Origin: Planctomycetaceae bacterium
GTDB lineage: Bacteria > Planctomycetota > Phycisphaerae > Phycisphaerales > SM1A02
DNA length: 64,000 nucleotides
Reading direction: 5' to 3'
Assembly: GCA_947490615.1 (NCBI GenBank)
Contig: CANLHK010000001.1
Location: 434,001-498,000 of the forward strand
Shown piece after piece: positions 12,096 to 39,419 of the stretch. The notes beneath the pieces were generated by a model. It had not been told where the DNA came from. It did not search any database and saw only the letters and a list, made by a program, of their open reading frames with translations. The stretch's first letter is position 1. Each line of letters opens with the position of its first letter. Made by a program: the position numbers and the translations under genes.

Positions 12096-12148
12096 CTCGT
12101 AAGCCCAGACAGTCCCGCGAGCGCAGCCAAGGCCAGTGAGAACCCTCC

Positions 12149-12511
12149 ATGTTTCGACCAGGCACCGATGAGACCAATGTCCAGTACGAGGATGTCCTCT
12201 GCAACTTCTGCAGGCGTTCGTGGGATCCCGATGACCCGACGCGTCCGCTCATCGAAGGTCATCATGGAAGCCACCTCTGCGGCGAGTGCCTCGCGCTGGC
12301 CTACCAAGCGGTGGTCTTGGAGAACAAGAGCGATCGCGTCGCGGGTGTCGCCTGCACCATGTGCCTTGAAGAACGAGACGACGAGTGCTGGCGAAGTCCC
12401 GAGTTTCATGACGCCGTCTTGTGTCGTCGCTGCGTGAAGCAATCGGCGACGGCACTCGAGAAGGACAAGGACTACCAGTGGACGCGGCCGAAGCAGGTGG
12501 AGGGTGCCTGA
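12149..12511 (+). CDS. Small zinc-ribbon protein
   Basis: A 120-aa protein with two treble-clef/ribbon halves: LCNFCRR ... HLCGECLALAY, then ACTMCLEE ... LCRRCVKQ. The first half resembles the ClpX-type C4 zinc-binding domain, here with no AAA domain attached. Eight Cys suggest two zinc sites. It is divergent from the sensor kinase across 67 bases. Role is unknown; it could be an adaptor or a nucleic-acid or protein binding module. Confidence 0.72.
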   Translation: MFRPGTDETNVQYEDVLCNFCRRSWDPDDPTRPLIEGHHGSHLCGECLALAYQAVVLENKSDRVAGVACTMCLEERDDECWRSPEFHDAVLCRRCVKQSATALEKDKDYQWTRPKQVEGA

Positions 12512-12573
12512 CGCGGCGACTTGCCTCAGCACCTCTGATGAAGTTGCCTTTGCCGATGGGTTTGCAGCCGCCC

Positions 12574-13257
12574 TTAGCGCTTGACCAGCGTCATCGCATG
12601 AAACGGTCGACCTTCACGGCGGAACTTCCGCTCGAAGTTGGTGCCCACGAGCTCGCCTTCACCCGCACTGGCTGGTCGCGCAAAATCGCGGCGCTCAAAG
12701 AGCTCCTGCGCGCGATCGACATGTTCGACATCCCATTGCCAGAGCTCGTCGTGGTCGGTCACGATCCGAAGTTCGCCCTGCGGACAGAGCACGCGATGAA
12801 ACTCGCGCAGCGTGTGATCCTGCACCACGCGTCGCTTGTGGTGACGCGACTTCGGCCATGGGTCACTGAAGTAAAGATGAATGACCGAGGCGATCGCATC
12901 GGGCGTGCGACCACGCAGAAAGTCGGTCGCATCGCCGCGCAGCACCTTCACATTGGTCAGTCCAACGCGTCGCACGCGATCGGCGGCGTAGGCCCAGAAC
13001 TCCCCAGCCCACTCGATACCGAGGAAGTTGGTGTTGGGCTCGAGTACCGCCTGCTGAAGCAGAAAGGTCCCCTTGCCCGAACCAATCTCGATCTCGAAGC
13101 GACGGCTCGGCTCTGCAAACCAGGCGCGCGGATCAAAGGCGAGTTGCGCACGCGCAGCTTCGACCGTGGCTGCATCAGGCAGCGGCGGCAATGCACTCAT
13201 CTCAACGCCCGCGGCACCAGGAACCAGTTCGCGTCCATGACCGAGCCCGAAACTCAT
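12574..13257 (-). CDS. trmB: tRNA (guanine-46-N7)-methyltransferase
   Basis: Methylates G46 of tRNA using S-adenosylmethionine. The 227-aa protein has the SAM motif IEIGSGKGTFLL, the family stretch LGIEWAGEFWAYA, the catalytic/substrate motif YFSDPWPKSRHHKRRV and the C-terminal T-x-x-E-like region GTNFERKFRREG. I place the start at 13257, where ATGA overlaps the stop of the upstream esterase, rather than ten codons upstream. Coupling to an exported esterase is odd functionally and probably only positional. Confidence 0.93.
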   Translation of the reverse strand: MSFGLGHGRELVPGAAGVEMSALPPLPDAATVEAARAQLAFDPRAWFAEPSRRFEIEIGSGKGTFLLQQAVLEPNTNFLGIEWAGEFWAYAADRVRRVGLTNVKVLRGDATDFLRGRTPDAIASVIHLYFSDPWPKSRHHKRRVVQDHTLREFHRVLCPQGELRIVTDHDELWQWDVEHVDRAQELFERRDFARPASAGEGELVGTNFERKFRREGRPFHAMTLVKR

Positions 13258-22178: not shown

Positions 22179-22973
22179 TTAGCTGTTTCCGCTCCATTTT
22201 CCATTGCGCCACCACGCCCTTGCGGGATCGACACGCCAGGTCGACTGGGGATCGCTCAGGTCGATCTCGATCAGCGGCTCATCGTTGTAGAGCGCGAGGT
22301 CGACGCCTGGCGCGCGCAGATCACCGCTGCGCAGCGCAAGCTCCACCAACATGCCTTGCACGACCATGCTTTCGTCTGAGAGCGGAGGCCCGCCCGTCGG
22401 CATGTTGGCGCACTCGCTGCGAAAGACATCGGCACCACCAGCAAGCGCCTCACCGACGCGCTCGAGGAGCGCGTCGGAGTTGTCCTGCTTGAGCACATTG
22501 AGCGCCTTGCGCCCTTCACCTCGACGGTGGTAGCTGATGGCACGCGCGAGCGATTCAAGTTGCGCGGGCTCGGGCGCGATGTCGCGTCGCTCGATCCCCT
22601 TGCCGCCAACCAACTCCGCGCCAGCTGTGGCGCGCGCGCGCTCGGCGTCATCGGTCGCGACTGAGGCCAGCGCAAGCATGGCGCTGCGGCCAAGCCGTGC
22701 TGCATCGAGCGCGCCCGCGAGTCCGAAGAGCTCTCGCGCGAGGATGCGTTCATCTTCGGTGGTCGCGGCGTCGGCGACTTCTTCGCCGAGATCGAGATAG
22801 TCCATTGGTCGCACAGGATCGAGCCGAGCGAGTCGCACTTCCCAACGCGATGACGCGGCCTGCTGCACGCGCGGTGATGCAAGGGCCAGCGTGGTCGACA
22901 GCAACATGGCGACGCTGAGCAACAAGACGGAGCGCATCGTGAAGAACCGTTGTGGGTGCATGGCGTGAGTCAT
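22179..22973 (-). CDS. Last gene of the ExbBD operon: secreted, unknown
   Basis: A 264-aa exported protein (signal peptide MRSVLLLSVAMLLSTTLALA inside the first 33 residues). The body is helical with Ala/Arg/Glu and suggests two or three TPR-like pairs (LARAISYHRRGEGRKALNVL), followed by a C-terminal segment with WRVDPARAWWRNGKW. No family recognised. It overlaps the 1017-aa gene by four bases and ends the operon of 22179-32541. Confidence 0.62.
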   Translation of the reverse strand: MTHAMHPQRFFTMRSVLLLSVAMLLSTTLALASPRVQQAASSRWEVRLARLDPVRPMDYLDLGEEVADAATTEDERILARELFGLAGALDAARLGRSAMLALASVATDDAERARATAGAELVGGKGIERRDIAPEPAQLESLARAISYHRRGEGRKALNVLKQDNSDALLERVGEALAGGADVFRSECANMPTGGPPLSDESMVVQGMLVELALRSGDLRAPGVDLALYNDEPLIEIDLSDPQSTWRVDPARAWWRNGKWSGNS

Positions 22974-25900
22974 CCGTTGCTCCGTTCGGTGGCCTTTGGT
23001 GCGAGACTCTCGCCCAAGATCCCCAGCATCGCATCGACATCGCCCTGAATCTGCGCAGAGGCACTCTGCCCGCCCGCGCGTGCGCGGCGTGCGGCCGTGA
23101 GCAACTCGGTGAGCTTCGATCGAAGCGCTGGTTGACGCGCCGCCACGAGCATCGCTGCGTAATCCACCAGCGCGGCCGACTCCGCGGCCATGCGTTGGGT
23201 CACGCTGATGGCCAGCGAACGCCGTGCGTTTCGCAGCCGCTCGATCTCGTCAATGGTCGTGGGAAACGGTTCAGCAAGGAAACGACTGGCCGCTTCGACT
23301 CGCAGCGCGTCCACGAGCCCTGAGAGCGAACGATCGGGTCGCGTCGACAGGACCGAACTTCCTTCGTGTCCGCCAAACGCCACCGCCAACGCGGTCGCCT
23401 GCGTGGCGATCTCAGCGCACGCAGCGTCGATGGCGTTCTCGCCGCTGTCATCGAGTTCGTAAATCTTGTCCAACAGCGCACGGCGTCCCTCGGAGACCCA
23501 GTCGCGGCCAGCGACCGACGCGCCCGAGAGTTGTCCGACAAAGATTCGACCATCCTCTGACACACCCGAGTCCGCCAGCGCGTCGAGCGTTGCACGCAGG
23601 ACTTCGCGCCCATTGGCGTACTTCTCAAGAAGCACGCTGCACAGCTCAGCGCGCACATCAGCTTGGCCGCCGCGCAGCGCCTCGCTTGCCGCGATGCGCG
23701 CATCGATGGGTCCGAGGTCGCCCGCGGCTGGTCGCGCGCGCAAGGTGCGAATCGCTTCGAGCCGCGACTTTGAATCGCGCGCCTTCCACTCATCTGCAAA
23801 CGAGCCATCGGGAATGCCTGTGCTCTGCAATCCCGAACGCAATCCGCTTGGTGACGCGATCCAATCCTTTGCTTCGCGCTCGCTGATGCCCTCGGTGACG
23901 CTCACCGCGAGCTTGGACATCTTCTCATCGTCGCGCTCGTAGGCACGAACAAGGCGAGCCAACGCAAGACTCGCTGCAGCGTTGCATAACCGCTCTGAGG
24001 TGTTTCCACTTGGAAGCGCGCGCACCGCGGCGAGTTTGGTCTTCCACAGTTCGAGTTGCGAAGTTTCGACGCTGATCGCCTCGCCGATGGAGGTCACGGT
24101 GACGCGCGGAAACGCCTTGTCCACTCGCTGCGCGAGCACGGTGCGGGCCGCCGAATCGGCGTTGGTCGCGAGCACGAGATCGGGCCCGTACCACGCGATC
24201 CCAAGATCGGCATCGAGCAAACTCGTAAAGACCCAGATGCGCGTCGGTGGAATCTTCGCGTCGACAAGCCACGCGCCGAGTGCGGTGCGCACAGCGTCGG
24301 CTTCTGCACCGCGGCCCGTGAAATCAAGCGATCGAATGAAGTACGCCAGCGCATCGACGATGGGACCCGGCTGATCGAGCGCACCAGGCGCGCGAAGCAC
24401 GGCGTCGATGGCGGCGGTCAAGGCGCGAATGCGCAGTCGCGGCGAACGACTCGCGGCAAACACCGCTTCGTTCCAGCGCGCCACATCTTCGAGCGTGCTC
24501 GAGCCGAACACCAGCTGTTCTGCCAGAAGCGGGGCTGACGCGACCAGCGAGTCAATCGCTGCAGAGGCAAAGGGATCTTCGATGGTGCCGCGCGGAATGG
24601 GAATGCTGCGCAACCGCATCTCTTCACGCGCGGCCGTCGCCACCTCAGGACTCTGCGAGGGATCGAGCGCGATACTCGCAAGGCAGCCCGCGCCAAACGC
24701 CAGTCGCCATTGCCGCTGCCACGGAGGGAGCGCGCGTTGGCCAGTGGCGCTCGCCGAACCAGGCACGAGTTGCATCACGCGGCGCAGACTGTCGGCGCCC
24801 TGCGCAACGCGAACCACGCTGCCGAACGCGCGCACGGCGTCGTTGCGATAGCCGCCCGCTGCGGGCCAGGAGTCCGCCGCGAGTCCCAGCGCGCGCTCCA
24901 TCAATCCAAGCGCGCGAGTCGACTCCGACGAACCTTCAACACGGCCGCCGCCCGCGGCCAGCGCCCGCGCCGCTTCATCGAGATCGACGAGCCACACCGC
25001 AGCGCCGCTGGCCGCCTCGGCGACTGATCCAGGCGTTGGTGTGGCGACAAATCCAGGTGGACGCGGGAACTTCGCGGGCGCAGCCAACGCCGCGATGGGA
25101 CCAATCGGCTTTCCGTTGGCGTCGACATCGCCCTGCGTTCTCGCAACTGCCTGCTCGGTCCCCTTGCTGTCGGGTGCGCCGCTTGTTGCGACATCAGGCG
25201 TGTTTCCAGAACCAGCGGATGAATCGCCGCCATCATTCCAGAAGAACAGGTAGCCAAGCGCGGCCATCCACGAGAGCGCGAAGATCGCAAACGCAGCAAT
25301 CAAACGCGCCTGCGAAGCTGCGGTGTGCCCGCCGACTTCATCGCGCAACACATCGTTGATGCGCGTGAAGACGCGCTCGACAGCGCCCTCGGCCGCGTCG
25401 ATGCCGCCGCGATGCTGCGTGCCCATCCACGACGAGCGGGCGGAGTCGCCGACATCGCCCATCGCGCTGCGCATTCCTTCGCCTTGCGAGAGGAACTCGG
25501 TGAGCCCGAGCACCACGCGCTCGAGATCGCCGATCGAGATCTGGTAGTCCTCGGCGATGGTCGCAAGGCGCTTCGCGCTCGTCGCGTTCCATCCACCGCT
25601 TACGACTAGGACCGCGAGGGCCACGCGATCAAACTCGGTGAGGTCGTCCGACGAGAGCCCGATGCCCGGCTTACTCACCGCGGAAGGCGCTACAACGACC
25701 TGCTTGACCTTCGACGCAGCGTCCATCGATTGCGAGCGAAGTCGCACTGCCGCACGGCGCGCCGCGATGGGATGGAGCGGACCCTTTCCTGAGAGAGCGA
25801 GTTCGGCCTGCAACCGATCGGCGGCGAGTTCGAGTTGTTGCAACAAACGCTTGGCTTCGAGTCCACCAGCCAGCGGGTGACGCGCGATTTCGTCGGCGCG

Positions 25901-26023
25901 TCTTTCAAGCGCGGCCTCAATCTGTCCGCTCTTCAAGGCGTCTTTCGGCAACGCCAAGAGCGTGCGATCGTCGGGCGACTTCACCTCAAGACCAAGGAAG
26001 CGTCGTTCGGGAGTCACACTCAT
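22970..26023 (-). CDS. Giant single-span membrane protein of the ExbBD operon
   Basis: A 1017-aa protein. Residues 1-235 are cytoplasmic: an opening RRFLGLEVKSPDDRTLLALP and a helical part (DRVALAVLVVSGGWNATSAK) that recalls small acidic helical bundles. One membrane helix at about 238-262 (LIAAFAIFALSWMAALGYLF). The remaining 750 residues are outside the membrane, starting with a Gly/Ser/Pro-rich linker, then Ala/Arg-rich alpha-helical repeats without motifs I can name. This topology, together with the ExbB/ExbD genes upstream, suggests a partner that spans the periplasm. That role is inference. Start and stop overlap neighbours by four bases each. Confidence 0.68.
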   Translation of the reverse strand: MSVTPERRFLGLEVKSPDDRTLLALPKDALKSGQIEAALERRADEIARHPLAGGLEAKRLLQQLELAADRLQAELALSGKGPLHPIAARRAAVRLRSQSMDAASKVKQVVVAPSAVSKPGIGLSSDDLTEFDRVALAVLVVSGGWNATSAKRLATIAEDYQISIGDLERVVLGLTEFLSQGEGMRSAMGDVGDSARSSWMGTQHRGGIDAAEGAVERVFTRINDVLRDEVGGHTAASQARLIAAFAIFALSWMAALGYLFFWNDGGDSSAGSGNTPDVATSGAPDSKGTEQAVARTQGDVDANGKPIGPIAALAAPAKFPRPPGFVATPTPGSVAEAASGAAVWLVDLDEAARALAAGGGRVEGSSESTRALGLMERALGLAADSWPAAGGYRNDAVRAFGSVVRVAQGADSLRRVMQLVPGSASATGQRALPPWQRQWRLAFGAGCLASIALDPSQSPEVATAAREEMRLRSIPIPRGTIEDPFASAAIDSLVASAPLLAEQLVFGSSTLEDVARWNEAVFAASRSPRLRIRALTAAIDAVLRAPGALDQPGPIVDALAYFIRSLDFTGRGAEADAVRTALGAWLVDAKIPPTRIWVFTSLLDADLGIAWYGPDLVLATNADSAARTVLAQRVDKAFPRVTVTSIGEAISVETSQLELWKTKLAAVRALPSGNTSERLCNAAASLALARLVRAYERDDEKMSKLAVSVTEGISEREAKDWIASPSGLRSGLQSTGIPDGSFADEWKARDSKSRLEAIRTLRARPAAGDLGPIDARIAASEALRGGQADVRAELCSVLLEKYANGREVLRATLDALADSGVSEDGRIFVGQLSGASVAGRDWVSEGRRALLDKIYELDDSGENAIDAACAEIATQATALAVAFGGHEGSSVLSTRPDRSLSGLVDALRVEAASRFLAEPFPTTIDEIERLRNARRSLAISVTQRMAAESAALVDYAAMLVAARQPALRSKLTELLTAARRARAGGQSASAQIQGDVDAMLGILGESLAPKATERSNG

Positions 26024-28743
26024 GGTGCAGCTCCTTCGCTTGGAGCGGGCGCATCACTTGGCGCGGCGGCAGGCGAGGCCGCGGGGAGCGCGCGCTCAAC
26101 ATCGAGGATGCGCGTGCGATAGGGCTCGGGGCCGAGATCGGGATAGAGCGCGCGATATTGCGAGAGCACTGCGCGCGCACGATCGGGCGCGAACTTCGCC
26201 AAGACGCGGATCTGGTCAACCTTGGCGTTGAACCACGGCTCGGTGCGCGGCGGCAATCCGCTGACGAGCATGCGCAACAGCTCGGCCGCGCGCTCCTCAT
26301 TGCCTGCGTGTTCTGCAAAGAGCGCCGCAGAGCGCAGCAGCGTGCCATCGTTGGGTCGCGTCTTCAGTTGGAGCTCAGCGAGCACCAGTCCGCGCTTGGA
26401 CTGCGCGGGATCGTTGTTGGAGCGCACAAGCTCGCTGCGCGCATCGAGCAGGATCGCCGCAATCTGCGCGAGCGCCTGCGCGTCAGGCGCCCCGGGCACC
26501 AAGGCCACTTCCACACCGCCAGCGCGTTCAAAGATCGCATCACCCGCGCGCACGATGCACGCGACATACGCACCGCGCTCGGGAGCGGTGTTGGCCACGG
26601 CGCGCCGCTTGCCTTCGGCGCCACGAATCGCCAGACGCAGCGCTGCATCGGCCCACAACTTGGTGGCTTCAGGCTTCTCGAAAGGCGCGAGCGCCGCATC
26701 GACATCCGACCATCGATCCGAGAGCATCGCCAGTTGCAACGCGCGGTAGGCGAGCTCTTCCTCGGCTTCGCGGCGATCAAACTGCCCCGCGGCCGCGGCT
26801 TTGTCGAGGCCTTCGAGCATCACGGTCGCCAACTGCGTTCCGCGCACTTCAGGAGCAAGAAGAACTTCGAGCGACTGCCGTGCGATCGCTGTGCTCGATG
26901 CAGGCAAGCCTGTGACGGGATCTACGGGGAGTTCGCCAAGGACCGCGATGTAGCGTCGACCCGTTTCTTCGCGCGGCTCCTTGCCTGCGCGGAAGGTGCG
27001 GTAGAGACCCTCGAGTGCTTGGCGGCGCGACACCAGCCAATCCTTACTCTCGGGACGAATGCGCAGGAGCTCCGTCACATCAGTGGCCGTCGGCTCCGCC
27101 ATCGCAGCAACCTTGCGCACGAGCAATTCTGGCACATGATCGCTGCCTGGGAAGCGCGTGAGGAAGACATCAACGCGACGCTGCAATTCGATGTCGAGCG
27201 CGGCGCGTTCCGCGGGAACGGTGTTCTTGCGACGCGCATCATCGAGTGAGAGGATGGAGAACCGCGACGCGTCTTCCGCGCGATCACCCACGGAATCGGT
27301 CGAGACGAGTTCGAACTCTGCAGCAGCTTCGGCAAATCGTCCCGCGCCGCGCAGACTCCACGCATGCATCAGGCGACAGGAGAGCAGTGCCTCTTCGAAT
27401 TGCTTGGCATCTGGGGCAGCGAGCGCGAGTTTCAATGCCGCCGCTGCAGCGTCCGAAGCGCGAACGACTGGCTCCGATTCGAGTTTGGTCTTGTCGGATC
27501 CCGCCGCAGCGATGGCGGTTTGCGACTCTTCATAGAGACGCACCGCGCGCACATAGAGCCCGACAAATCCAGCGGTCGCGCCCTCGGCACCCGCCTCGTC
27601 GCCGAGAATGCGCTCGCCGTACTTGTTCACGAGATCGCGAATCGCCGAGAGATCACGCTTGGCGGCGAGTAACGCAATTGCCTCGCGCAGAAGCTTCTCA
27701 GCGTCCGCATCCCCGCGGCCCTTCTCGACGGCGCGTGACGCAGCGACGCGTGCCCAGTTCGCAGCGTCGATGCGCGGAGAAACTTGCGTGAGCAACTCGC
27801 GCGCCGTCGCAAACGCGCGCGCCTCAAGCGCAGCCACGAGCGACCAACCCACGCGCACTTCGCGCACCGAAGCAATGGTCTCGGTGTGGTCAAGCAAATC
27901 GAGCCAGCGCGCCGCTTCGGCGTATCCGCCCGTCGGCGCTTTCGCCAAGGCAAGACCGAGGAGTGCACTGGCGTAGAGCTCATCGGCGCGCAGCGGCTCG
28001 GAAACTTCGCTCGGAAGCAACTTGCCGTCGCGCGCTCCGAGCAGCGGAAGAAACACCGTCGCGGCACGATCGGAGTCTTTGCTGTCGTCGCGCAGGAAAC
28101 CGCGGTAAACAAGGCTCCACGCAGCGAGGTAACGCGAGACACCCGCAAGCGAACTCGCGCGGTCCTTCTCCTCCTGCAACGCTTCGGCCTTCATCGGATC
28201 GTCGGAGTCGATCCTGCGATCGATGTCCATGGCGCGCTTGTCGGCGCGCGTGGCGATCTCAAGCAACCCTTCGATCTGTTGCGAAAGCGCGTTGGCAGCT
28301 TCGACGGCATCTCCTGGCATACCCGCACGAATCGCCTCGGCGACGCGCGCCGCGCTGCGATAGCGCGCCCGTGCCGCGGCCACGCGCAGCGTGTCACCTT
28401 TGGCGCTTTCGATTCCCGTTGCCAGCGCGTCGGCGCGCCGCAGCAGAAACGCCTGCGTACTCGGGTCTGTGCTGTTGTCGAGCATCCGCGCAAAGAGATC
28501 CGCCAAGCGATCGATGAGTTGCGCCTTCTCCTCGCCTGAGGCTGCGCCCGCGAGTTGCTCGATGCGAAGCGCGGCAAGCGAGTCGAGTCCGTGCCCGTCG
28601 AGATACTCAAGGAGTTCATCCGCGCGCACCGGCGCCGCAAGAGCGCAGGCCAGCGCCAGCGCGCCAATCCAACGAGACGCCCGCTGCACGCGGCAACGCG
28701 TCGTGTTGGTGATTCGTGAAGTTGCGTCACTTGGCTGGCACAT
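26020..28743 (-). CDS. Large secreted helical-repeat (TPR-like) protein
   Basis: A 907-aa exported protein. Signal peptide at about 20-42 (WIGALALACALAAPVRA). The rest is built of antiparallel helix pairs with TPR-like spacing, for example ALLGLALAKAPTGGYAEAAR, SLRGAGRFAEAAAEFELVST and AALFAEHAGNEERAAELLRM. The extreme C-terminus is Ala/Pro-rich. The start overlaps exbD2 by 17 bases and the end overlaps the 1017-aa gene by four, so all are one transcript. It would be a periplasmic scaffold for the ExbB/ExbD machine; inferred from context. Confidence 0.7.
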   Translation of the reverse strand: MCQPSDATSRITNTTRCRVQRASRWIGALALACALAAPVRADELLEYLDGHGLDSLAALRIEQLAGAASGEEKAQLIDRLADLFARMLDNSTDPSTQAFLLRRADALATGIESAKGDTLRVAAARARYRSAARVAEAIRAGMPGDAVEAANALSQQIEGLLEIATRADKRAMDIDRRIDSDDPMKAEALQEEKDRASSLAGVSRYLAAWSLVYRGFLRDDSKDSDRAATVFLPLLGARDGKLLPSEVSEPLRADELYASALLGLALAKAPTGGYAEAARWLDLLDHTETIASVREVRVGWSLVAALEARAFATARELLTQVSPRIDAANWARVAASRAVEKGRGDADAEKLLREAIALLAAKRDLSAIRDLVNKYGERILGDEAGAEGATAGFVGLYVRAVRLYEESQTAIAAAGSDKTKLESEPVVRASDAAAAALKLALAAPDAKQFEEALLSCRLMHAWSLRGAGRFAEAAAEFELVSTDSVGDRAEDASRFSILSLDDARRKNTVPAERAALDIELQRRVDVFLTRFPGSDHVPELLVRKVAAMAEPTATDVTELLRIRPESKDWLVSRRQALEGLYRTFRAGKEPREETGRRYIAVLGELPVDPVTGLPASSTAIARQSLEVLLAPEVRGTQLATVMLEGLDKAAAAGQFDRREAEEELAYRALQLAMLSDRWSDVDAALAPFEKPEATKLWADAALRLAIRGAEGKRRAVANTAPERGAYVACIVRAGDAIFERAGGVEVALVPGAPDAQALAQIAAILLDARSELVRSNNDPAQSKRGLVLAELQLKTRPNDGTLLRSAALFAEHAGNEERAAELLRMLVSGLPPRTEPWFNAKVDQIRVLAKFAPDRARAVLSQYRALYPDLGPEPYRTRILDVERALPAASPAAAPSDAPAPSEGAAP

Positions 28744-29134
28744 AGGTCACCGCTTCAAAACCAACATCACGCGCCACCTGAATCGCCGTCGCCGCTGAAC
28801 CAACATCGACACCTGGGTAGACGCGCACAAAGAGCCCGCGCTCACGCGGAAGAAGTTGCAAGGCCAACGCGAGCGACGCACGATCCGCGTGATCGCTCGA
28901 ACCGACACGAAACACCGTGTTTTCTCCTACGCGCAGCACTTCCACGATCTGTGGCTCGAGGTCGTCCTTGGCGTCGGTCCCCTGCTGCACGCGGAGATTC
29001 GGCGAAAGTTTCGACTCGTTGGAACCCGCGCCTGTCGTGAAGATGAAGAACGACAGGAGCAAGAAGGTCGCGTCGATCATCGACGCGAGGTTCAGCTCAG
29101 GCTTGCGGTCGCCACCAGAACGCTTGAAGCGCAT
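28727..29134 (-). CDS. ExbD/TolR-family protein 2
   Basis: A 135-aa protein with the ExbD/TolR plan: short basic cytoplasmic start, single membrane helix with the conserved acidic residue in LNLASMIDATFLLLSFFIFT, then a periplasmic domain (VRVYPGVDVGSAATAIQVAR). The Asp of ASMID is the proton-path residue of the family. It starts one base after exbD1. Pairs of unlike ExbD genes behind one ExbB are common in planctomycetes. Confidence 0.88.
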   Translation of the reverse strand: MRFKRSGGDRKPELNLASMIDATFLLLSFFIFTTGAGSNESKLSPNLRVQQGTDAKDDLEPQIVEVLRVGENTVFRVGSSDHADRASLALALQLLPRERGLFVRVYPGVDVGSAATAIQVARDVGFEAVTYVPAK

Positions 29135-29135
29135 C

Positions 29136-29558
29136 TCAGCGACCCCTTTCGGTGGCCAGTCGAATGGCGGTCAGCCCGCGAGAGCTGAGGTGATTGAAGA
29201 CCTCATTGAGCCGAACCGCGTCACACTTGCGGTCGGCGCGCACCAGCGGCTTCAGCGCATCGACACCGCCCGCGCGGGTGATCGCTTGATCGACCAGGCG
29301 ATCAAGCGCCTCCAACGAGAGCGTCTCGTCGTTGACCACGACGCTTCCGTCCGCGAGCAGATTGATGGTGAGTCCCGCTTGCTCGCGATCTTCGGTCTCT
29401 TCGCCCTTCTCCTTGGGAAGATCGAGTGTTTCCCGCGTCGCCTGCGCCATCTGCGCGGTGACGAGGAAGAAGATCAACAACTGAAACACGATGTCGATCA
29501 TCGGCGTCATGTCGATGTTGACGCTTCGGTTGGATTGACGGGTGTTTCGGAAGTTCAC
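29136..29558 (-). CDS. ExbD/TolR-family protein 1
   Basis: A 140-aa protein with VNIDMTPMIDIVFQLLIFFL as its membrane helix; the Asp in PMIDIVF is the conserved proton-coupling residue. The periplasmic domain holds the usual LTINLLADGSVVVNDETLS strand set and a final helix. It stands 43 bases after the ExbB-like gene. With ExbD2 it would form the mixed TolR/ExbD part of a proton-driven motor in the inner membrane. Confidence 0.92.
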   Translation of the reverse strand: MNFRNTRQSNRSVNIDMTPMIDIVFQLLIFFLVTAQMAQATRETLDLPKEKGEETEDREQAGLTINLLADGSVVVNDETLSLEALDRLVDQAITRAGGVDALKPLVRADRKCDAVRLNEVFNHLSSRGLTAIRLATERGR

Positions 29559-29601
29559 GGTGAAATCCTCGGTCGCACAGGAGTGATCCGCCTTCAGCGA
29601 T

Positions 29602-30321
29602 TCACTTGGTCGGCTTGCGTCCGCTCTTCTCGACGAGCGTCACGATTTCCTCGGCGTTCGCGGCGCATTCACCCGCGAGCGCATCGACGCGGTTGCGCAG
29701 GTAGCCGTAGATCGACACACACGGAATCGCCACGACGAGACCTTGGAAAGTCGTGATGAGCGCGATGGAGATGTTGGCGGCCAGCGACTCGTAGTACGAC
29801 GCGTTGTTGGCCGCGCCCGTAGCGACGGTGTCGAAGGCGCCGATCATGCCTTGCACGGTTCCGAGCAGTCCAAGCAGCGGAGCGACGGAGCCGATGGTCG
29901 CGATGACATCCATGGTGCGATAGAGCTTCGCGGTTTCTTCCGCGCCCGCTTCTTCCATCGCGCTCTTGATCTCAAAGGCACCAAACGGCGAACGAAGGAA
30001 GCGCTTCAAGCCTGCACCGATGACGCGCAGGTAGTAGCAGTCGTTGGCGGGAAGCGTCGAGTACTCCAGCGCTCCCTCGAGATCGCCGCGCTCCACGAGC
30101 TCCCGTACAGCCTTGACCTTTTCGGCGGGAAGGAGCGCGGTTCGGCGGATCTGCACGAAGTGCACGATCACAAAGGCGACCGCGACGATCGACAACACCA
30201 CGATGAGGTAGCCGATGATGCCGCCACCCGTGATGAACTTGAGCAGCGAGCCACTGTCGCTCGCGGCGTCAGGCGCGGCGTCAGTTTGAAGCAGGATGGT
30301 GGTGAAGATGCTGTGCAACAT
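29602..30321 (-). CDS. MotA/TolQ/ExbB proton-channel protein
   Basis: A 239-aa protein. An N-terminal periplasmic stretch, membrane helix 1 (GGIIGYLIVVLSIVAVAFVI), a cytoplasmic domain, and then the paired helices VIATIGSVAPLLGLLGTVQG and LITTFQGLVVAIPCV that form the family signature. The ATG at 30321 has GAGGA seven bases upstream; the frame runs on into the next gene but without a better start. Partner of the two ExbD proteins. The set lacks tolA, tolB and pal, and no standard tonB is seen. Confidence 0.92.
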   Translation of the reverse strand: MLHSIFTTILLQTDAAPDAASDSGSLLKFITGGGIIGYLIVVLSIVAVAFVIVHFVQIRRTALLPAEKVKAVRELVERGDLEGALEYSTLPANDCYYLRVIGAGLKRFLRSPFGAFEIKSAMEEAGAEETAKLYRTMDVIATIGSVAPLLGLLGTVQGMIGAFDTVATGAANNASYYESLAANISIALITTFQGLVVAIPCVSIYGYLRNRVDALAGECAANAEEIVTLVEKSGRKPTK

Positions 30322-30331
30322 GTCAGAGTCC

Positions 30332-31543
30332 TCAGCGGGCGCTGGGCGGGGTAGAAGTTCGGCCTGGCTTGGCAGCGAGGCCCGATGAAGTCGAAAGAGA
30401 GGTCTCGGAGAGAATCGCGTCAAGTTGCGCGGCGCTGGCTTCGTCGCCCGACGCACGCAGGAGGCGCGCGGCCTCTTCCAAGGCGTAGGCCTCAACGAGA
30501 CCCGTGCGATCCAAACCTGAGGCGGGAACGGCGAGCAATTCGAGTGCGGCGCGACCGAGCAAGGCCGCGCGTTCGTTGGTGTTGGACTCAGGCATGGCGC
30601 GAGCGAGGCGCGCGCGGCAGGTGCCGAGAGCGGCGAGCCGCCACGCGCCGAGCGAGCTCACGGGCTCGGGGTAGGCGCGATCAAAGTCGAGGATGCTTTG
30701 CTCGAGCGCGCGCGCGTCCGCAGCCACGACGATCGATTCGACGAAGGCGAGCGCGCGCACGGCGGGTGGAAGCGCATGCATCGCAGCGAAAGACGAGTTC
30801 CCTGATGCCGTGGCGTTGGCTGCACTCGGATCCGTCGCACTCGTGGGTTCAGTCAGACGCGCAATACGAACGATCCGTGCGGCGACTTCGCCCGCTTCAC
30901 CAGTCGCTCCTGCAGCGTTGCAAGCAGCGATCACTTCGGCGCGACGGACCGCTGGGAGAAAGGGCGAGAGCTCAGGCAGCAAGCCAGTGTCCGCGTCGAG
31001 AACCGCAGGAAGCGCGGGGAAACGCGTGGTTTGTCCTGCGCTTCGATGGCGCACACAGGCAAGCCACGGATCAGTGGCGGCGCGCACATCTTGTTGCGCG
31101 AGAGCGCAGCGCAAGAGACCTTCAGCCACAAGTGCCGCAGTCGGTCCATCAGCGGCGCGAAACCGCGCCCATTGCTTGGCGAGCAGCGGCTGCGCGAGTG
31201 CAAAGTCTCCACGCTCGATGCGAATGCGCGCGCGCCACAGGTCGGTGCCGATGGTGAGGAACTCACCGAAAGATCCTGTCGACGCTGCGCCTTCGACGGC
31301 GCGCACCATGTCCCACGGCAGCACGCGACGCTGCGCCTCGCCGCCACCGCTCTTGGCGCGAATCTCAAGTCCATGCGCGTCACCAAAGATGGTCTCGGCA
31401 ACGATGGGCGGCGCGTCACCGCGCACGAAGACGGTGACCTGCGCATGGACGCGAGCGCCAAGCACGAAGGTCAGTGCACACAGCATGGAGGCTGCGCGGC
31501 GCGCGGTCGTCGCGAACTGTTGCTGGTGAGGCGCGCGCTTCAT
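30332..31543 (-). CDS. Secreted protein of unknown family in the ExbBD operon
   Basis: A 403-aa exported protein. Signal peptide ending GARVHAQ at about residue 35, then a small beta domain (VTVFVRGDAPPIVAETIFGD ... RRVLPWDMVRAVEG) that looks like a ligand or glycan module, then a long Ala-rich helical part resembling TPR text (FALAQPLLAKQWARFRAAD). No name can be given. The start overlaps the VWA gene by ATGA. Confidence 0.65.
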   Translation of the reverse strand: MKRAPHQQQFATTARRAASMLCALTFVLGARVHAQVTVFVRGDAPPIVAETIFGDAHGLEIRAKSGGGEAQRRVLPWDMVRAVEGAASTGSFGEFLTIGTDLWRARIRIERGDFALAQPLLAKQWARFRAADGPTAALVAEGLLRCALAQQDVRAATDPWLACVRHRSAGQTTRFPALPAVLDADTGLLPELSPFLPAVRRAEVIAACNAAGATGEAGEVAARIVRIARLTEPTSATDPSAANATASGNSSFAAMHALPPAVRALAFVESIVVAADARALEQSILDFDRAYPEPVSSLGAWRLAALGTCRARLARAMPESNTNERAALLGRAALELLAVPASGLDRTGLVEAYALEEAARLLRASGDEASAAQLDAILSETSLSTSSGLAAKPGRTSTPPSAR

Positions 31544-32541
31544 GGTGCCGCCTTAGAACCGCCGCGTGTGGGTACGAAGCGGAAGACGCCGCGATGGGCG
31601 CGCGCGATGCGCTCGAGCGGCTCTTTGCCTGCTTCGCTCGAGAATCCGATGGTGTTGATGATGACCTTGCGCTTCGAGCTTTCTGCAGCGGTTTGCAGGT
31701 GGTATTCGGTCTCGTCCTGAATCTCACCATCGGTGAGGAAGAAGATCACATCGGGCGGTTGGGGCAGCCCCAACACGAGCTCGAACGCGCCGTGCGGCCG
31801 CGTGGCGCCGCGCGAAGTCTGCAGATTGATCCAATCGTTGATGCGCGTCTTGTTCGCGCGCGTGGCCTTGAGCCAGCCATCCTTCTCGAAATCAGGAATG
31901 AATGGACCATCCGAGAAGAGCACCACATAGAACTGCGTGAAGTCAGGGAGCGCGCTCACCGAGCGCTTGAGCTCCGCCATGGCGGTGACGAGGCGATTGT
32001 CGGTGTCCATCGAACCCGAGACATCGACGATGTACGCGAAGCGCGTTCCGCGCCCGCCGACGCCGAAGAAACTCGTGCCGCCTCCACCGCGACCGCTGCC
32101 GATTCCGATGCCACTGCCTGCACCACCAGGTCCGACGATCGCGCCGATGCCTGGCGCTTCGAGCATCCCGTAGGAATCGGCGTTGGGATTGCTGCTCGCT
32201 TGCTCGTTGGAGAGATTGGGATTGGGATCAAGCTCCGTCGTGACGGGACCAAGCACCAACGGCGTGGGATCAGGAAGTTCGATCTCGTCCGCGACGATCT
32301 CAACGACGGGCGGAAGTTCCTGCAGCACCATCTCCACAGGAGCGGCGTCATCATCGATGCGTCCTGGCAACGCCACCGACCAGAGGCGGAGCATCACGAT
32401 GACATGCACGACGATCGAGACTGCGAAGCCGAGAAGAAGCAGATGCACCCAACGCTCGCGCACCATGCGGCGCCGCTCGTCGCGCATGCGCTCTTCAGGG
32501 GTTCGATCGGATGCGTTCGCTCCCGCGCGGGAAGGCGTCAT
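31540..32541 (-). CDS. Membrane-anchored von Willebrand A protein with TonB-like N-terminus
   Basis: A 333-aa protein. After a basic start come one membrane helix at about 35-58 (VHLLLLGFAVSIVVHVIVML) and a Pro/Glu/Val-rich spacer (VEMVLQELPPVVEIVADE), the same layout as TonB. A Gly-rich linker follows, then a VWA domain from about 168 with the metal site D173-x-S175-x-S177 in VDVSGSMD, a Thr after GATRPHGAFE and an Asp in FFLTDGE. It is the first gene of the operon. A TonB-like tether carrying a VWA domain in place of the TonB C-terminus, next to ExbB/ExbD, implies it is the moved part. This is inference. The ATG at 32541 is chosen because it fits the spacing; the frame stays open further up. 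Confidence 0.85.
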   Translation of the reverse strand: MTPSRAGANASDRTPEERMRDERRRMVRERWVHLLLLGFAVSIVVHVIVMLRLWSVALPGRIDDDAAPVEMVLQELPPVVEIVADEIELPDPTPLVLGPVTTELDPNPNLSNEQASSNPNADSYGMLEAPGIGAIVGPGGAGSGIGIGSGRGGGGTSFFGVGGRGTRFAYIVDVSGSMDTDNRLVTAMAELKRSVSALPDFTQFYVVLFSDGPFIPDFEKDGWLKATRANKTRINDWINLQTSRGATRPHGAFELVLGLPQPPDVIFFLTDGEIQDETEYHLQTAAESSKRKVIINTIGFSSEAGKEPLERIARAHRGVFRFVPTRGGSKAAP

Positions 32542-32717: not shown

Positions 32718-33443
32718 CTAACTGCGCGTGACCAGCGTGCCGATCCGCTCACCCGCCACAACGCGACGGATGTTGCCCGCGGCTTTGTAGTCAAACACGC
32801 AGACAGGAAGATCATGCTCCATGCACATCGTCAGGGCGGTGAGGTCCATCACACCAAGTTGCCGTTCGATGGCTTCCGCAAAAGTCAGCCGGTCGTAGCG
32901 CTTGGCCTTGGGGTCCTTCTTGGGGTCGGCGGTGTAGATACCGTCGACCTTGGTGGCCTTGAGCAGGATGCTCGCGTTGAGTTCGACGGCGCGAAGACTC
33001 GCACAGGTATCGGTGGTGAAGAAGGGATTTCCCGTGCCCGCCACCATGATGATCACGCGGCCCTTCTCAAGGTGGCGAATCGCGCGCCCACGAATGAACG
33101 GCTCCGCAACGGCGGGAACATTGATCGCGCTCATCACGCGCGCAGGGCGGCCGATCCCTTCGAGTGCTTCCTTGAGCGCGAGTCCGTTGATGACCGTGCC
33201 GAGCATGCCCATGTAGTCGGCGGTTGATTGGTGCACCACGCCGTCTTTGGCCAGGCGCGCGCCGCGAATGATGTTGCCACCACCCACGACCACCGCGATC
33301 TGTCCACCGAGTTCGCAGGCCGAGGCGATCTCGTTGGCGATTACCTTGAGTTCTTGGGTGTCGATACCGAGCTGCCCCACGGGCGCGAGGCTCTCTCCAC
33401 TAATCTTGAGAACGAGTCGCTGCGAAACCTTCGATGCGGGCAT
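32718..33443 (-). CDS. pyrH: UMP kinase
   Basis: Phosphorylates UMP to UDP, amino-acid-kinase fold. The 241-aa protein shows RLVLKISGESLAPVGQLGID, the phosphate loop AVVVGGGNIIRG, the STADYMGMLGTVINGLALKE stretch, VAGTGNPFFTTDTCASLRAV, and the LLKATKVDGIYTADP loop that binds the allosteric side. A TTGACC-17 bases-TCGAAT promoter stands six bases before the ATG. The usual rpsB-tsf-pyrH-frr order is broken; here frr is divergent across 104 bases. Confidence 0.96.
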   Translation of the reverse strand: MPASKVSQRLVLKISGESLAPVGQLGIDTQELKVIANEIASACELGGQIAVVVGGGNIIRGARLAKDGVVHQSTADYMGMLGTVINGLALKEALEGIGRPARVMSAINVPAVAEPFIRGRAIRHLEKGRVIIMVAGTGNPFFTTDTCASLRAVELNASILLKATKVDGIYTADPKKDPKAKRYDRLTFAEAIERQLGVMDLTALTMCMEHDLPVCVFDYKAAGNIRRVVAGERIGTLVTRS

Positions 33444-33449
33444 GCGCGC

Positions 33450-33478
33450 ATTCGACCTGACTCGCGGCCTGCGGTCAA
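33450..33478 (-). promoter_or_regulatory. Promoter of pyrH, leaderless
   Basis: TTGACC (33473-33478), a 17-base spacer and TCGAAT (33450-33455) on the minus strand, then six bases and the ATG. It is the best -35/-10 pair among the leaderless set. Confidence 0.6.
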
Positions 33479-33496
33479 GGTGCTCGAAACACGGCG

Positions 33497-33520
33497 TTGC
33501 CAACGAGTTGGTGTTGGCAA
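33497..33520. promoter_or_regulatory. Inverted repeat between pyrH and frr
   Basis: TTGCCAAC, 8 bases, GTTGGCAA: a perfect 8-bp inverted repeat in the divergent gap. It lies just upstream of the frr -10 box and 18 bases upstream of the pyrH -35, so it could be a shared operator for both genes. Confidence 0.45.
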
Positions 33521-33532
33521 GGAGTGCCTTGT

Positions 33533-33538
33533 TACACT
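33533..33538 (+). promoter_or_regulatory. -10 box (TACACT) for leaderless frr
   Basis: TACACT sits in GTTACACTCGC and ends nine bases before the frr ATG. The thrS promoter has the same GTTACACTCGC string. Confidence 0.55.
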
Positions 33539-33547
33539 CGCGCCACT

Positions 33548-34114
33548 ATGGACCTGAAGACGATCATCTCTGAGACCGACGACCGCATGCAGAAGTCGAC
33601 CGACTACTTGCAGCGTGAGCTGCGCGGCCTTCGCACGGGCCGCGCGAGCACCGCCCTCTTGGAGTACATCAAGGTCGACTATTACGGCTCGCACACCGAC
33701 CTGCGCGAACTCGCGGCGATCACCGTCGCCGAGGCCACGCAGCTGGTCGTCAAGCCCTTCGATCCTGGTGCGAAACACGACATCGTCCGCGCGATTGAGA
33801 CTTCGGGCCTCGGACTCAATCCGATGGTTGATGGCGGCATGATCCGCATCAATGTGCCTGCGCCGAGCGCCGATCGACGCAAGCAACTCATCTCGCAGGT
33901 CAAGAAGCTTGCCGAGGAAACCAAGGTCGCCGTGCGCAACGAGCGCCGCGATGCGAACAAGTCCGTCGATACCGCCGTCGCCGACAAGAAGAACGCGATC
34001 CCTGAGGACTCCGCCAAGGATGCGAAGGATCAGATCGACAAGATGACGAAGAAGTTCTGCGACGCACTCGACACCATCGCGACCAAGAAGTGCGTCGAAG
34101 TCGAGGCGATCTAA
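33548..34114 (+). CDS. frr: Ribosome recycling factor
   Basis: Splits post-termination ribosomes together with EF-G. At 188 aa it is family length. The core helices carry LQRELRGLRTGRASTALLEY, the hinge region and domain II are IKVDYYGSHTDLRELAAITV, and NPMVDGGMIRINVPAPSADR leads into the long basic C-terminal helices. The stop lies in a 12-bp tandem repeat (34111-34134), giving a second in-frame TAA. Convergent with nrdR. Confidence 0.96.
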   Translation: MDLKTIISETDDRMQKSTDYLQRELRGLRTGRASTALLEYIKVDYYGSHTDLRELAAITVAEATQLVVKPFDPGAKHDIVRAIETSGLGLNPMVDGGMIRINVPAPSADRRKQLISQVKKLAEETKVAVRNERRDANKSVDTAVADKKNAIPEDSAKDAKDQIDKMTKKFCDALDTIATKKCVEVEAI

Positions 34115-37269: not shown

Positions 37270-37337
37270 GCGCCATGCCTGCAGTTCCGCGGCGCGCGCG
37301 CGCGCATGTGTTCCTCACACCCTTTTGGAGTTTTTCG

Positions 37338-39419
37338 ATGGCAACTCTCTCTCGTAATTCGAGCATCCTTGCTGGCACGGCCGTGCTTGCAAGCTCGCTC
37401 CTCGTCGCTGCCGCGGCTTCCGCGCAGTGCACGATCGACCCGGCCCCGACCTTCACCCAGAATGACACTGGCTGTCCAGTCACTGGCGTTGTGGACACCA
37501 ACGGTGGCTGCAATGTCTCCCCAATCGCATTCCAGGCAACGGGCACGCTCACTCGCAAGAGCCCGAGCTTCACGATCGGCGGATCGATGGGACAAGATCC
37601 CGTCGCCGGCTCGCGTGACCTCGACTGGTACAGCTTCGAAGTCGCGGAGCCATGCTTCGTGAACATCACCGTCTCGGCGGTCACCGCCCTGGGCGCTCCC
37701 TCGACGGTCACCACCGTGTTCTACGGTGACCCGAACAACTGCGCCAGCTTCGGCGGCTTCCTCTTTGCCGCTTGCCCGCTGGCCTACCCAGAGCAGTTCG
37801 CTGACACCGGCTCGCACGCCGTGATCGTCACCACCGAGTTCGCCGCGGGTGGCGGAATGGCCTGCGATACGGCCTACACCATCACCGTCTCGGCGCGCTT
37901 CAGCGCGTTCCCAGAGTGCGGCACTGGCAGCAACTGCGGCGTTGCAACCCCGGGCATCCCCGGCTGCGCTGACATCTCCTGCTGCGACCTCATCTGCACC
38001 GCTGACCCGACCTGCTGCATCCTCGGTTGGGATACGCCGTGCGCGACCCTCGCTCAGCAGCCACCAGCCGGTGGCGGTTGCGGCGTGTTCGTCTACAACT
38101 GCGTTGCCACCGCCGTCGCCAACGACTGCGCGATCAATGCGGAGACCGTGGCGTTCGATGTTGTCACTGCCTTCGACAACACCCTCGCGGGTGCTGACGG
38201 TCCGAACAACGGCCAGTGCGGTGCAGACACCGCCAAGGATGTCTGGTTCATCGTCCAGGCCAATGCGGACGGCAACATGACGCTCACCGCCAATTCGCCA
38301 ACGCAGGACATCGTCCTCTCGGCCTACAACAACGGCCTCAGCGGAACCGTCGATGGCACCCAGCTCGCCAACAACTTTGTCGGTTGCATTGACAACCTCG
38401 GCATCGGTGGCGAGACCGCAACCATCGTCGGCTGCACCGCTGGCAACTTCTACCTGTGGCGCCTTGGTATCTGGGGCAACCCAGCGACCCCAGGCACCGA
38501 AGGTGTCGCAGGAGCTGGATCGATCTCGATCTCGCTCGAGCAGGTCGTCTTTGACACCGGCATCCATGCCGCTGTCTGCACGCCAGCTGGCGTTGCCACC
38601 AACCTCGGCCTCTCCAGCGGCGCCATCGCAGCTAGTTTGCCACAGCGTTGGCTTGCAGCTCCATTCACCGTGGCTGACCCAGACGGCGCGGGCCCGCAAG
38701 ACAGCTGGCGCGTGACCCTCTTCCAGCCAGAAGGCTTCCAGCCAGCTGGAACCCTCAATGAGAAGATGAACTGGATCCTCTGGTCGCGCAATGGAGTGGC
38801 CGCGCCAAACTACGCGACCGACCAGGTTGCCAGCGGACAGATCGCTTACCCAGTCCTCGGCGCCAACGGCGAGGCTGACATCCCAGTTGACATGATCCTC
38901 CCAGTCGGTGACTACTACCTGACCGTCTTCGCTTCCGCGCTGGGTAACCCCTGCGCCGCGAACGATGGCCAAATCGTGCTCTCCAACTACGCGTGGTTCA
39001 TCGGTGCACCAAACGGCATGGCTCTCTCTGATGCCAGCGGCATCTTCGCGTGGCGTTCGGCAGCGCAGCCGGGCTCTGGCCCAGCGAACGAAGTCGTCCG
39101 AGTGGGCACCGTGGATCCATGCGAAGGCATGGCTGGCGCAGGCTTCCTCCGCTACACCGGCCTCAACGGTGCGTATCAGAACTGCACCGCGGGTGGCACG
39201 ATGACCCCGGTCTACAGCCCAGCGTTCCACATCCTCGGCTTCCCCGAGGCGTCGAACAACTGCCCGACCGACTTCAACAGCGACGGCGAAACTGGCTCTG
39301 CTGACCTCTCGATCCTGCTCAACGGCTGGGGTACGGCTTCGCCCGACCTCAACGCTGACGGAACCGTGGGATCGGCTGACCTCTCGATCCTGCTCAACGC
39401 TTGGGGCGTCTGCCCGTGA
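37338..39419 (+). CDS. Secreted protein with a C-terminal dockerin-like EF-hand pair
   Basis: A 693-aa exported protein. GGAG eight bases before the ATG; signal peptide to about residue 31 (LASSLLVAAAASA). The body is beta-rich, Gly/Asn/Thr-rich, with very few Lys and many Cys. A Cys-rich module at about 207-250 has CADISCCDLICTADPTCCI. A second and a third beta unit follow. The last 50 residues are two 25-residue repeats, DFNSDGETGSADLSILL and DLNADGTVGSADLSILL, each with a full calcium loop (DxNxDGxxxxxD), ending WGVCP. In Phycisphaerae this end is common on exported proteins and may serve sorting or anchoring. Function of the body is unknown. The 3' terminator is strong. Confidence 0.82.
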   Translation: MATLSRNSSILAGTAVLASSLLVAAAASAQCTIDPAPTFTQNDTGCPVTGVVDTNGGCNVSPIAFQATGTLTRKSPSFTIGGSMGQDPVAGSRDLDWYSFEVAEPCFVNITVSAVTALGAPSTVTTVFYGDPNNCASFGGFLFAACPLAYPEQFADTGSHAVIVTTEFAAGGGMACDTAYTITVSARFSAFPECGTGSNCGVATPGIPGCADISCCDLICTADPTCCILGWDTPCATLAQQPPAGGGCGVFVYNCVATAVANDCAINAETVAFDVVTAFDNTLAGADGPNNGQCGADTAKDVWFIVQANADGNMTLTANSPTQDIVLSAYNNGLSGTVDGTQLANNFVGCIDNLGIGGETATIVGCTAGNFYLWRLGIWGNPATPGTEGVAGAGSISISLEQVVFDTGIHAAVCTPAGVATNLGLSSGAIAASLPQRWLAAPFTVADPDGAGPQDSWRVTLFQPEGFQPAGTLNEKMNWILWSRNGVAAPNYATDQVASGQIAYPVLGANGEADIPVDMILPVGDYYLTVFASALGNPCAANDGQIVLSNYAWFIGAPNGMALSDASGIFAWRSAAQPGSGPANEVVRVGTVDPCEGMAGAGFLRYTGLNGAYQNCTAGGTMTPVYSPAFHILGFPEASNNCPTDFNSDGETGSADLSILLNGWGTASPDLNADGTVGSADLSILLNAWGVCP
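39300..39399 (+). repeat. 25-nt direct repeats inside the dockerin-like end
   Basis: The 25-base string beginning GCTGACCTCTCGATCCTGCT occurs at 39300-39324 and at 39375-39399, offset by 75 bases, equal to the 25-residue protein repeat. Identity at DNA level suggests recent duplication or conversion. Confidence 0.8.

What the first reader, a model, noticed from the sequence alone, without database searches (positions are those of the whole stretch)
22179..32541. Eight-gene operon pairing an ExbB/ExbD motor with a VWA protein on a TonB-like tether
Seen: on one strand, with overlaps or gaps of at most 43 bases, a VWA protein (membrane helix, Pro/Glu spacer, intact DxSxS metal site), a secreted unknown, ExbB/TolQ-like, two ExbD/TolR-like with conserved Asp, a 907-aa secreted helical protein, a 1017-aa single-span protein with a 750-aa external part, and a 264-aa secreted protein. 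Known: ExbB/ExbD turn proton flow into motion of TonB or TolA. Inference: here the moved part is the VWA protein or the 1017-aa protein, and the large helical proteins form a periplasmic assembly. tonB, tolA, tolB and pal are absent. I know of no named system with this set.
Basis: partly seen in the sequence, partly recalled or inferred. Interest (0 to 1): 0.78.

Follow-up and report, generated by a model that had tools for sequence, protein, structure and literature searches.

The report
Proton-driven VWA envelope machine, Planctomycetota
Eight neighbouring genes, kept together in two groups of Planctomycetota, look like a proton-driven motor that works a tethered VWA gripping protein inside a scaffold of periplasmic helical-repeat proteins; the motor-plus-VWA core was already predicted in print, and the larger scaffolded version is the new part.

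Summary
In detail: eight genes, one strand, junctions from -17 to +43 nt. All eight stand in the same order in 13 of the 116 loci I examined, which were picked by similarity; two of the 13 lie outside the window's class. ExbB of these operons falls on one supported branch. In 294 genomes of the phylum, full-length H907 occurs in 10 and T1017 in 9 of those ten. The VWA protein is the TonB/TolA-like part: SxxxH in the membrane helix of 36 of 38 family members, against 18 of 558 control helices, with an invariant metal site. The 1017-aa protein lacks this signature. The motor-VWA-TPR core is already published as a prediction (Williams-Jones 2025, PMC12204202; passages read). 'tonB absent' holds for the window, not the genome, where TonB sits beside its own ExbB/ExbD. 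New here: the eight-gene form with a large TPR-type solenoid, a membrane solenoid protein with a weakly supported J-like cytosolic part, and one genome whose operon lacks only the motor genes. Cargo and phenotype are unknown.

The parts
31540..32541 (-). VWA protein, 333 aa: N-terminal stretch, one membrane helix, ~110-residue Pro/Gly-rich linker, VWA domain; proposed force transducer
32404..32418 (-). SxxxH (S42, H46) of the membrane helix, part of the TonB/TolA motor-docking signature; both invariant in 17 rows
   Evidence: motif named in PMC12204202
31567..32046 (-). VWA domain with intact metal site (D173, S175, S177, T247, D271 invariant in 17 rows)
30332..31543 (-). U403: signal-like N-terminus, then (by eye) a short beta-like stretch and a helical rest; no Pfam family
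   Evidence: a homologue in a core-type locus, E 1.6e-7
29602..30321 (-). ExbB/TolQ-like proton channel subunit, 239 aa
   Evidence: T155, T190, T191 invariant in 19 rows
29136..29558 (-). ExbD/TolR-like subunit 1, membrane Asp22
28727..29134 (-). ExbD/TolR-like subunit 2, membrane Asp21
26020..28743 (-). H907: signal-like N-terminus, all-helical TPR-type solenoid (AlphaFold2 mean pLDDT 86.5)
22970..26023 (-). T1017: N-terminal part, one predicted span near residue 241, long all-helical rest (model poor, pLDDT 59.5)
25769..26023 (-). N-terminal ~85 residues of T1017: J-domain-like, the D of HPD missing (weak profile evidence)
22179..22973 (-). S264: signal-like N-terminus, no family; C-terminal DPxxxxWRNGxW-like end (W260 invariant in 11 rows)

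Best explanation
It is a chromosomal, vertically inherited envelope force machine. ExbB with an ExbD-1/ExbD-2 pair makes a 5:2-type proton-driven motor. The VWA protein docks on the outside of ExbB through its SxxxH membrane helix, as TonB and TolA do. The motor stretches or pulls it through the periplasm on its ~110-residue linker. The VWA head grips a ligand through its metal site and passes the force towards the outer membrane or cell wall. H907 (a TPR-type solenoid), U403, S264 and the single-span T1017 form a periplasmic scaffold that places motors or presents the ligand, with T1017 tying it to the inner membrane and cytosol. The likely role is general envelope maintenance rather than uptake of one nutrient. 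Shown by computation: gene set, order, conservation, SxxxH, metal site, proton-site residues, H907 fold class. Inferred: 5:2 stoichiometry, docking, force, topology, scaffold, ligand and role.
For: Eight genes in order on one strand in 13 of 116 loci examined; 83 of 84 junctions at most 60 nt in the 12 relatives (starts were chosen near the previous stop, so this is favoured by construction). Of ten named loci taken on and not used to train the profiles, seven hit H907 and T1017 in order, five of these also S264 and two up to the contig end (L056, L058, L061, L065, L071; L057, L062). L059 and L063 are cut before T1017, and L066 missed T1017. T1017 in 9 of 294 genomes, all nine among the 10 with full-length H907. 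SxxxH in 36 of 38 VWA versus 18 of 558 control helices. VWA metal-site residues invariant in 17 rows, both ExbD Asp and three ExbB Thr in 19. TonB_C matchless in 5 of those 10 genomes. H907 model pLDDT 86.5, TPR-type neighbours. ExbB of the system on one starred branch, 96/95. pyrH or frr beside the operon in the window, L040 and 15 further loci. No transporter or receptor recognised in the operon. Core predicted by others with AlphaFold3 complexes (PMC12204202 section 8, passages).
Against: No phenotype, interaction or complex model of mine. L058, L066 and L067 carry the operon without an adjacent VWA hit. G270 keeps VWA-U403-H907-T1017-S264 without exbB/exbD in the operon, so the link is not obligate in cis, though two other exbB-exbD-exbD loci exist there. 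L076 has AxxxH instead of SxxxH. The L and second S of the SHLS motif are not among the invariant columns. T1017 is modelled poorly. The set is patchy: no T1017 match in the sampled genomes of families f3 and f4 of the order, nor in 285 of 294 genomes of the sample.
Confidence: 0.6

Rival explanations
1. The machine powers something specific: surface adhesion, gliding, or uptake of large polymers, with the VWA head as adhesin or gate puller, rather than general envelope upkeep.
For: VWA domains often bind ligands through an intact metal site, conserved here. Williams-Jones et al. suggest a gliding-type role for such proteins. Patchy distribution fits an optional function.
Against: No surface protein, secretion gene, receptor or enzyme recognised in the operon. 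The VWA head should be periplasmic (inferred topology). Signs of vertical inheritance beside pyrH/frr suit a housekeeping role, but do not prove it.
Confidence: 0.25
2. The ExbB/ExbD here serves TonB in trans, and the VWA and solenoid proteins are an accessory or unrelated cluster.
For: The genome has a TonB_C protein; a TPR protein is needed by a Vibrio TonB2 system (PMC6957404, passages).
Against: TonB has its own ExbB/ExbD next door on C12. G002, G034, G095, G172 and G278 have the full operon and no TonB_C match; G095 and G034 also have no Plug match. The VWA itself carries SxxxH.
Confidence: 0.05
3. T1017, not the VWA protein, is the moved part.
For: It has a single predicted span and a long part beyond it.
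Against: SxxxH at its best helix in 1 of 18 family members against 36 of 38 for VWA. It has over 200 residues before the span, unlike TonB/TolA (recalled), and has no profile hit in the core-type loci that keep motor and VWA.
Confidence: 0.07

Closest known systems
vWA force transducers with tolQ, two tolR and a TPR gene (Williams-Jones et al. 2025, PMC12204202; a prediction; outline and passages seen)
   Same: TonB/TolA-like membrane helix with the S and H of the SHLS motif, linker of about 100 residues, VWA head, one tolQ-like and two different tolR-like genes, a TPR gene; Planctomycetes are among the phyla named
   Different: Here VWA is the first gene, U403 lies between VWA and exbB, and T1017 and S264 are added. 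The paper's passages and figure legend name only a TPR gene beside motor and vWA; its figure and supplement were not seen
TonB-ExbB-ExbD and TolA-TolQ-TolR
   Same: Motor genes, proton-site residues, SxxxH helix; the VWA profile weakly matches the N-terminal half of this genome's own TonB
   Different: C-terminal domain is VWA, not TonB_C; no receptor, TolB or Pal in the operon; two different ExbD
Vibrio vulnificus TonB2 system with TtpB2 and TtpD2 (PMC6957404, passages seen)
   Same: An ExbB/ExbD motor system that needs a TPR protein (TtpD2), shown by mutants
   Different: TonB2 is a TonB; TtpD2 is 425 aa; iron uptake; no VWA mentioned in the passages seen
Campylobacter PflA/PflB stator scaffold (PMC12222027, passages seen; 9HMF)
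   Same: A TPR superhelical periplasmic protein plus an inner-membrane-associated TPR protein that hold stator motors in place; 9hmf_K is among Foldseek's matches to H907 (rank 12, E 3.9e-5)
   Different: Flagellar; TM-scores 0.16 and 0.18, so only a shared repeat architecture; no homology shown

Membership tests
vWA force transducer family of Williams-Jones et al. 2025 | Membrane helix with SHLS-type motif ('many' of the family, in the paper's words) | tested here: met
   S42 and H46 invariant in 17 rows, SxxxH in 36 of 38 family members; the L and second S of the motif are not invariant
vWA force transducer family of Williams-Jones et al. 2025 | Linker of about 100 residues followed by a vWA head | tested here: met
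   About 110 residues, 12% Pro and 19% Gly; VWA by Pfam and PDB profile search. Disorder and the motor-box strand were not tested
vWA force transducer family of Williams-Jones et al. 2025 | Next to tolQ, two heterologous tolR and a TPR gene | tested here: met
   H907 TPR-type; the H907 profile hits the long gene of core-type loci, E 3e-24 in L068
vWA force transducer family of Williams-Jones et al. 2025 | Helix docks on the motor through the His | not testable with these tools
   No complex prediction available
TonB/TolA | TonB_C/TolA C-terminal fold | tested here: not met
   Pfam scan of the VWA protein gives only VWA families above cut-off
Tol-Pal system | tolB and pal with the motor | tested here: not met
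   None recognised in the operon; no TolB_N match in the genome; OmpA-domain matches lie elsewhere
ExbB/ExbD motor | Family match and proton-site residues | tested here: met
   ExbD D22 and D21, ExbB T155, T190, T191 invariant in 19 rows
Zorya or other known anti-phage systems | Match to PADLOC models | tested here: not met
   No match at E 0.01 for any of the 8 proteins
J-domain proteins (T1017 N-terminus) | J-domain profile match with HPD | tested here: not met
   Profile hits DnaJ chains at E 0.0073 and weaker, the D of HPD absent in the aligned rows; Pfam DnaJ in 1 of 11 members at 0.089
PflA/PflB stator scaffold | Homology to PflA or PflB | tested here: inconclusive
   9hmf_K at Foldseek rank 12 for H907, TM 0.16 and 0.18

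The most novel reading that the evidence does not exclude
A previously undescribed envelope-spanning machine, old enough to be shared by Phycisphaerae and Planctomycetia. A TonB/TolA-type motor works a metal-dependent VWA grip inside a dedicated periplasmic TPR scaffold, built on the same plan as the stator scaffold of Campylobacter, and T1017 couples it to the cytosol through a degenerate J-like domain. In genomes such as the window's, where no TolB was found, it would stand in for Tol-Pal.
Probability: 0.3. Interest if true: 0.72.

Novelty: new variant of a known kind. Interest (0 to 1): 0.52.

Why it matters
How planctomycetes hold and work their enlarged periplasm (so described in an abstract listed, PMC11958385) is not settled, and the 2025 paper says the function of its vWA transducers remains unknown. 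A fixed eight-gene set gives named partners to test, and one genome whose operon lacks only the motor genes is a natural experiment. If right, it would add a transducer beside TonB and TolA that has its own scaffold.

Tried and rejected
Defence system: no PADLOC match. Known NCBI families: nothing reaches its cut-off; below it are TolQ, ExbB, TolR, ExbD and MotA-type scores for the motor subunits, one for the VWA and one unrelated label for H907. T1017 fold: model pLDDT 59.5, Foldseek best E 3e-3 with TM about 0.1, no PDB sequence match at E 1; I take only 'all-helical' from it. H907's structural neighbours are mostly generic TPR and other helical repeats; Z up to 15.8 is only slightly above the typical best of 14 that the tool quotes for helical models. 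Motor genes serving TonB: see rivals. Outside the phylum: 240 genomes of the phylum of L100's genome (Opitutia by record title, so Verrucomicrobiota) gave 12 matches at E 1e-5 or better, none full-length, best 5.1e-8 on a short stretch; other phyla were not surveyed. The VWA search of the phylum (210 of 294) largely reports the common VWA domain and was not used for distribution. Lipoprotein signal: 0 of 19 U403, 5 of 18 H907, 1 of 15 S264 with a loose pattern, not informative. Gene essentiality: the main text of the Planctopirus Tn-seq paper does not hold ExbB, TolQ, biopolymer transport or von Willebrand (PMC10632474, term search); its supplements could not be read. Whether L058, L066 and L067 have a VWA partner elsewhere was not searched. 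Searches in print for the eight-gene set; only PMC12204202 was close.

Weak points of my counts: the first nine loci with all eight genes came from the top VWA hits, and the profiles were trained on members found, which include all 13 full loci. In the VWA count the cut was E 1e-10; the seven hits below it are L037 (TonB, no SxxxH), L084 and L107 (no SxxxH), and L068, L070, L085 and L153 (SxxxH present). The 558 control helices come from mechanical ORFs of 200 aa or more, many of which are probably not genes. The ExbB tree is midpoint-rooted, its support tests used the labels full, part and core separately, and none of these labels alone forms one group. The T1017 gene of G270 is seen in L150 (E 2e-83), but the genome search missed it.
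Full report
Observation. The eight genes are in the places given, on the minus strand, with junctions of -4, +10, +43, +1, -17, -4 and -4 nt. Pfam names ExbB, two ExbD and VWA, and nothing above cut-off for U403, H907, T1017 and S264; NCBIfam has nothing above cut-off for any of the eight.

Conservation of the set. I examined 116 loci with profiles of the eight families: the window, 100 loci L036-L135 and 15 loci L144-L158. 39 of them hold four or more of the genes, and 13 hold all eight on one strand in the same order: window, L040, L043-L046, L052-L054, L056, L061, L065, L071. The loci were chosen by similarity, so this is no frequency, and the profiles were trained on members of these loci. 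The out-of-sample test is, whose profiles came from nine earlier loci. Of the ten named loci taken on as members, L056, L061, L065 and L071 showed all eight genes, L057 and L062 seven up to a contig end, and L058 seven without VWA. L059 and L063 are cut before T1017, and L066 missed T1017 and VWA. The four unknown proteins share about 15-30% identity with members outside the genus, so order is kept far beyond recent copying. Nine further loci on the same ExbB branch are incomplete: L057, L059, L060, L062, L063, L064 and L067 are cut by a contig end, and L058, L066 and L067 have no VWA hit next door.

Descent. A midpoint-rooted tree of 59 ExbB rows puts all 22 rows of this kind, with L073 and L076, on one starred branch (96/95). 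It splits into 17 rows of Phycisphaerae-type or same-order origin and 7 rows labelled Pirellulaceae or Planctomycetaceae or coming from family f71. pyrH or frr lies beside the operon in the window, L040 and 15 further loci, none of them in the group of seven. I read this as old vertical inheritance.

Distribution. In an even sample of 294 genomes of the phylum, a full-length H907 match (E below 1e-100) occurs in 10: G000, G251, G002, G034, G095, G172, G270, G278, G121, G205. A further 71 genomes have weaker matches, mostly short. T1017 occurs in 9 of 294, all among those ten; the tenth, G270, has it in L150. In the order, the sampled genomes of f1 and f2 have full-length H907 and those of f3 and f4 do not. 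In 240 genomes of the phylum of L100 no full-length H907 was seen.

Which part is moved. Williams-Jones et al. (passages) give SHLS as the motor-binding motif of TolA and TonB. In the VWA family its S and H (S42, H46 here) are invariant in 17 aligned members, and SxxxH lies at the best membrane helix of 36 of 38 family members. The exceptions are L041, an 879-aa protein, and L076, with A for S. Control helices of other ORFs from the same loci have it in 18 of 558. T1017 members have it in 1 of 18. The metal site is invariant too. The VWA profile also matches the N-terminal half of this genome's TonB weakly (5e-5 in the ORF set; alignment), partly over low-complexity linker; that TonB has A for the S. 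So the VWA protein is the TonB/TolA-like element and keeps a working-looking grip; T1017 is not.

Partners elsewhere in the genome. There are five MotA/ExbB matches: this operon; a second VWA-ExbB-ExbD-ExbD set on C3 (L036); ExbB-ExbD-TonB on C12 with a Plug match near it; a MotA/MotB-like pair on C8; and one on C2 without an ExbD hit beside it. TonB thus has its own motor. Five of the ten genomes with full-length H907 have no TonB_C match; G270's is weak, 1.1e-5. Of five genomes tested for Plug, G034, G095 and G270 have none. The window's genome has no TolB_N match.

The unknown proteins. H907 is modelled well (mean pLDDT 86.5, pTM 0.62) as an all-helical solenoid. The TPR family matched by most members, TPR_6, is found in 4 of 9, and structural neighbours are largely TPR superhelices. 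The H907 profile hits the long gene after the ExbD pair in core-type loci (L068, 3e-24; L155, 6e-16), so H907 corresponds to the TPR gene of the published core. U403 has a distant homologue in a core-type locus (L180, 1.6e-7) and no family. T1017 is all-helical with one predicted span, poorly modelled. Its N-terminal 85 residues give DnaJ chains as 12 of 20 PDB hits, E 0.0073 to 1.3, mixed with S20 and others, and lack the D of HPD: a lead only. S264 has no family.

G270. In L150 the order VWA-U403-H907-T1017-S264 is kept while exbB and both exbD are missing from the operon. Two other exbB-exbD-exbD loci exist in that genome, without a VWA profile hit in the stretch shown. The VWA there still has SVLVH. 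So the five non-motor genes cohere on their own and may use another motor. This is one genome, and loss rather than original absence is my reading.

Mechanism, shown and inferred. Shown by computation: the gene set, its spread, the docking signature, the proton-site residues and the grip residues. From established knowledge: ExbB/ExbD are proton-driven motors. From the 2025 paper: AlphaFold3 places such VWA helices at the TonB/TolA site. Inferred by me: the TPR-type proteins as scaffold, T1017 as the tie to the cytosol, envelope maintenance as role. Two precedents make the scaffold idea reasonable without homology: TtpD2, a TPR protein required by a Vibrio TonB2 system (PMC6957404, passages), and PflA/PflB, TPR proteins that hold Campylobacter stators (PMC12222027, passages).

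Novelty. The core is a published prediction. I found no description of the eight-gene form in four searches of the held open-access papers, but the figure and supplement of Williams-Jones et al. were not available to me. I therefore call it a new variant of a known kind.

Noticed in passing
L036 (own genome, contig C3:268000-286000), 4007-10154: A second VWA(SLAIH)-ExbB-ExbD-ExbD set followed by an 883-aa and a 279-aa gene: a paralogous machine in the same genome; VWA-ExbB-ExbD-ExbD also in the same-genus genome (L042).
   Followed up: partly
L150 (G270:C1:262000-281000), 4644-12898: The operon without its motor genes, VWA-U403-H907-T1017-S264; apparently a natural loss of exbB/exbD/exbD.
   Followed up: partly
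L052:6247-7284 and L054:6818-7846: VWA proteins of the two out-of-class genomes carry an extra N-terminal CxxC...CPHC zinc-ribbon-like segment before the membrane helix.
   Followed up: no
L049:5952-6950 and L055:6139-7182: VWA proteins with the SxxxH membrane helix and no motor-gene hit in the 19-kb stretch around them.
   Followed up: no
L144 (G291), 4986-8912: Two long ORFs (619 and 630 aa) with hydrophobic N-termini, one with SLVVH, beside a distant H907-like gene; possible further transducers.
   Followed up: no
L076 (Phycisphaerales ALOHA_ZT_36), 8314-14265: A shrunken form: VWA with AxxxH, U403, ExbB, two ExbD, then a 732-aa and a 216-aa ORF, the latter with one predicted span.
   Followed up: no
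window 37275-39419 (+): 714-aa ORF with signal-like N-terminus ending in two dockerin-like repeats (DFNSDGETGSADLSILLNGWG); identification from memory.
   Followed up: no
window 32718-33503 (-) and 33497-34114 (+): pyrH points the same way as the operon and away from frr here and in L040, while in the other loci pyrH (with frr where seen) points away from the operon: probably a local inversion of pyrH in this genus.
   Followed up: partly
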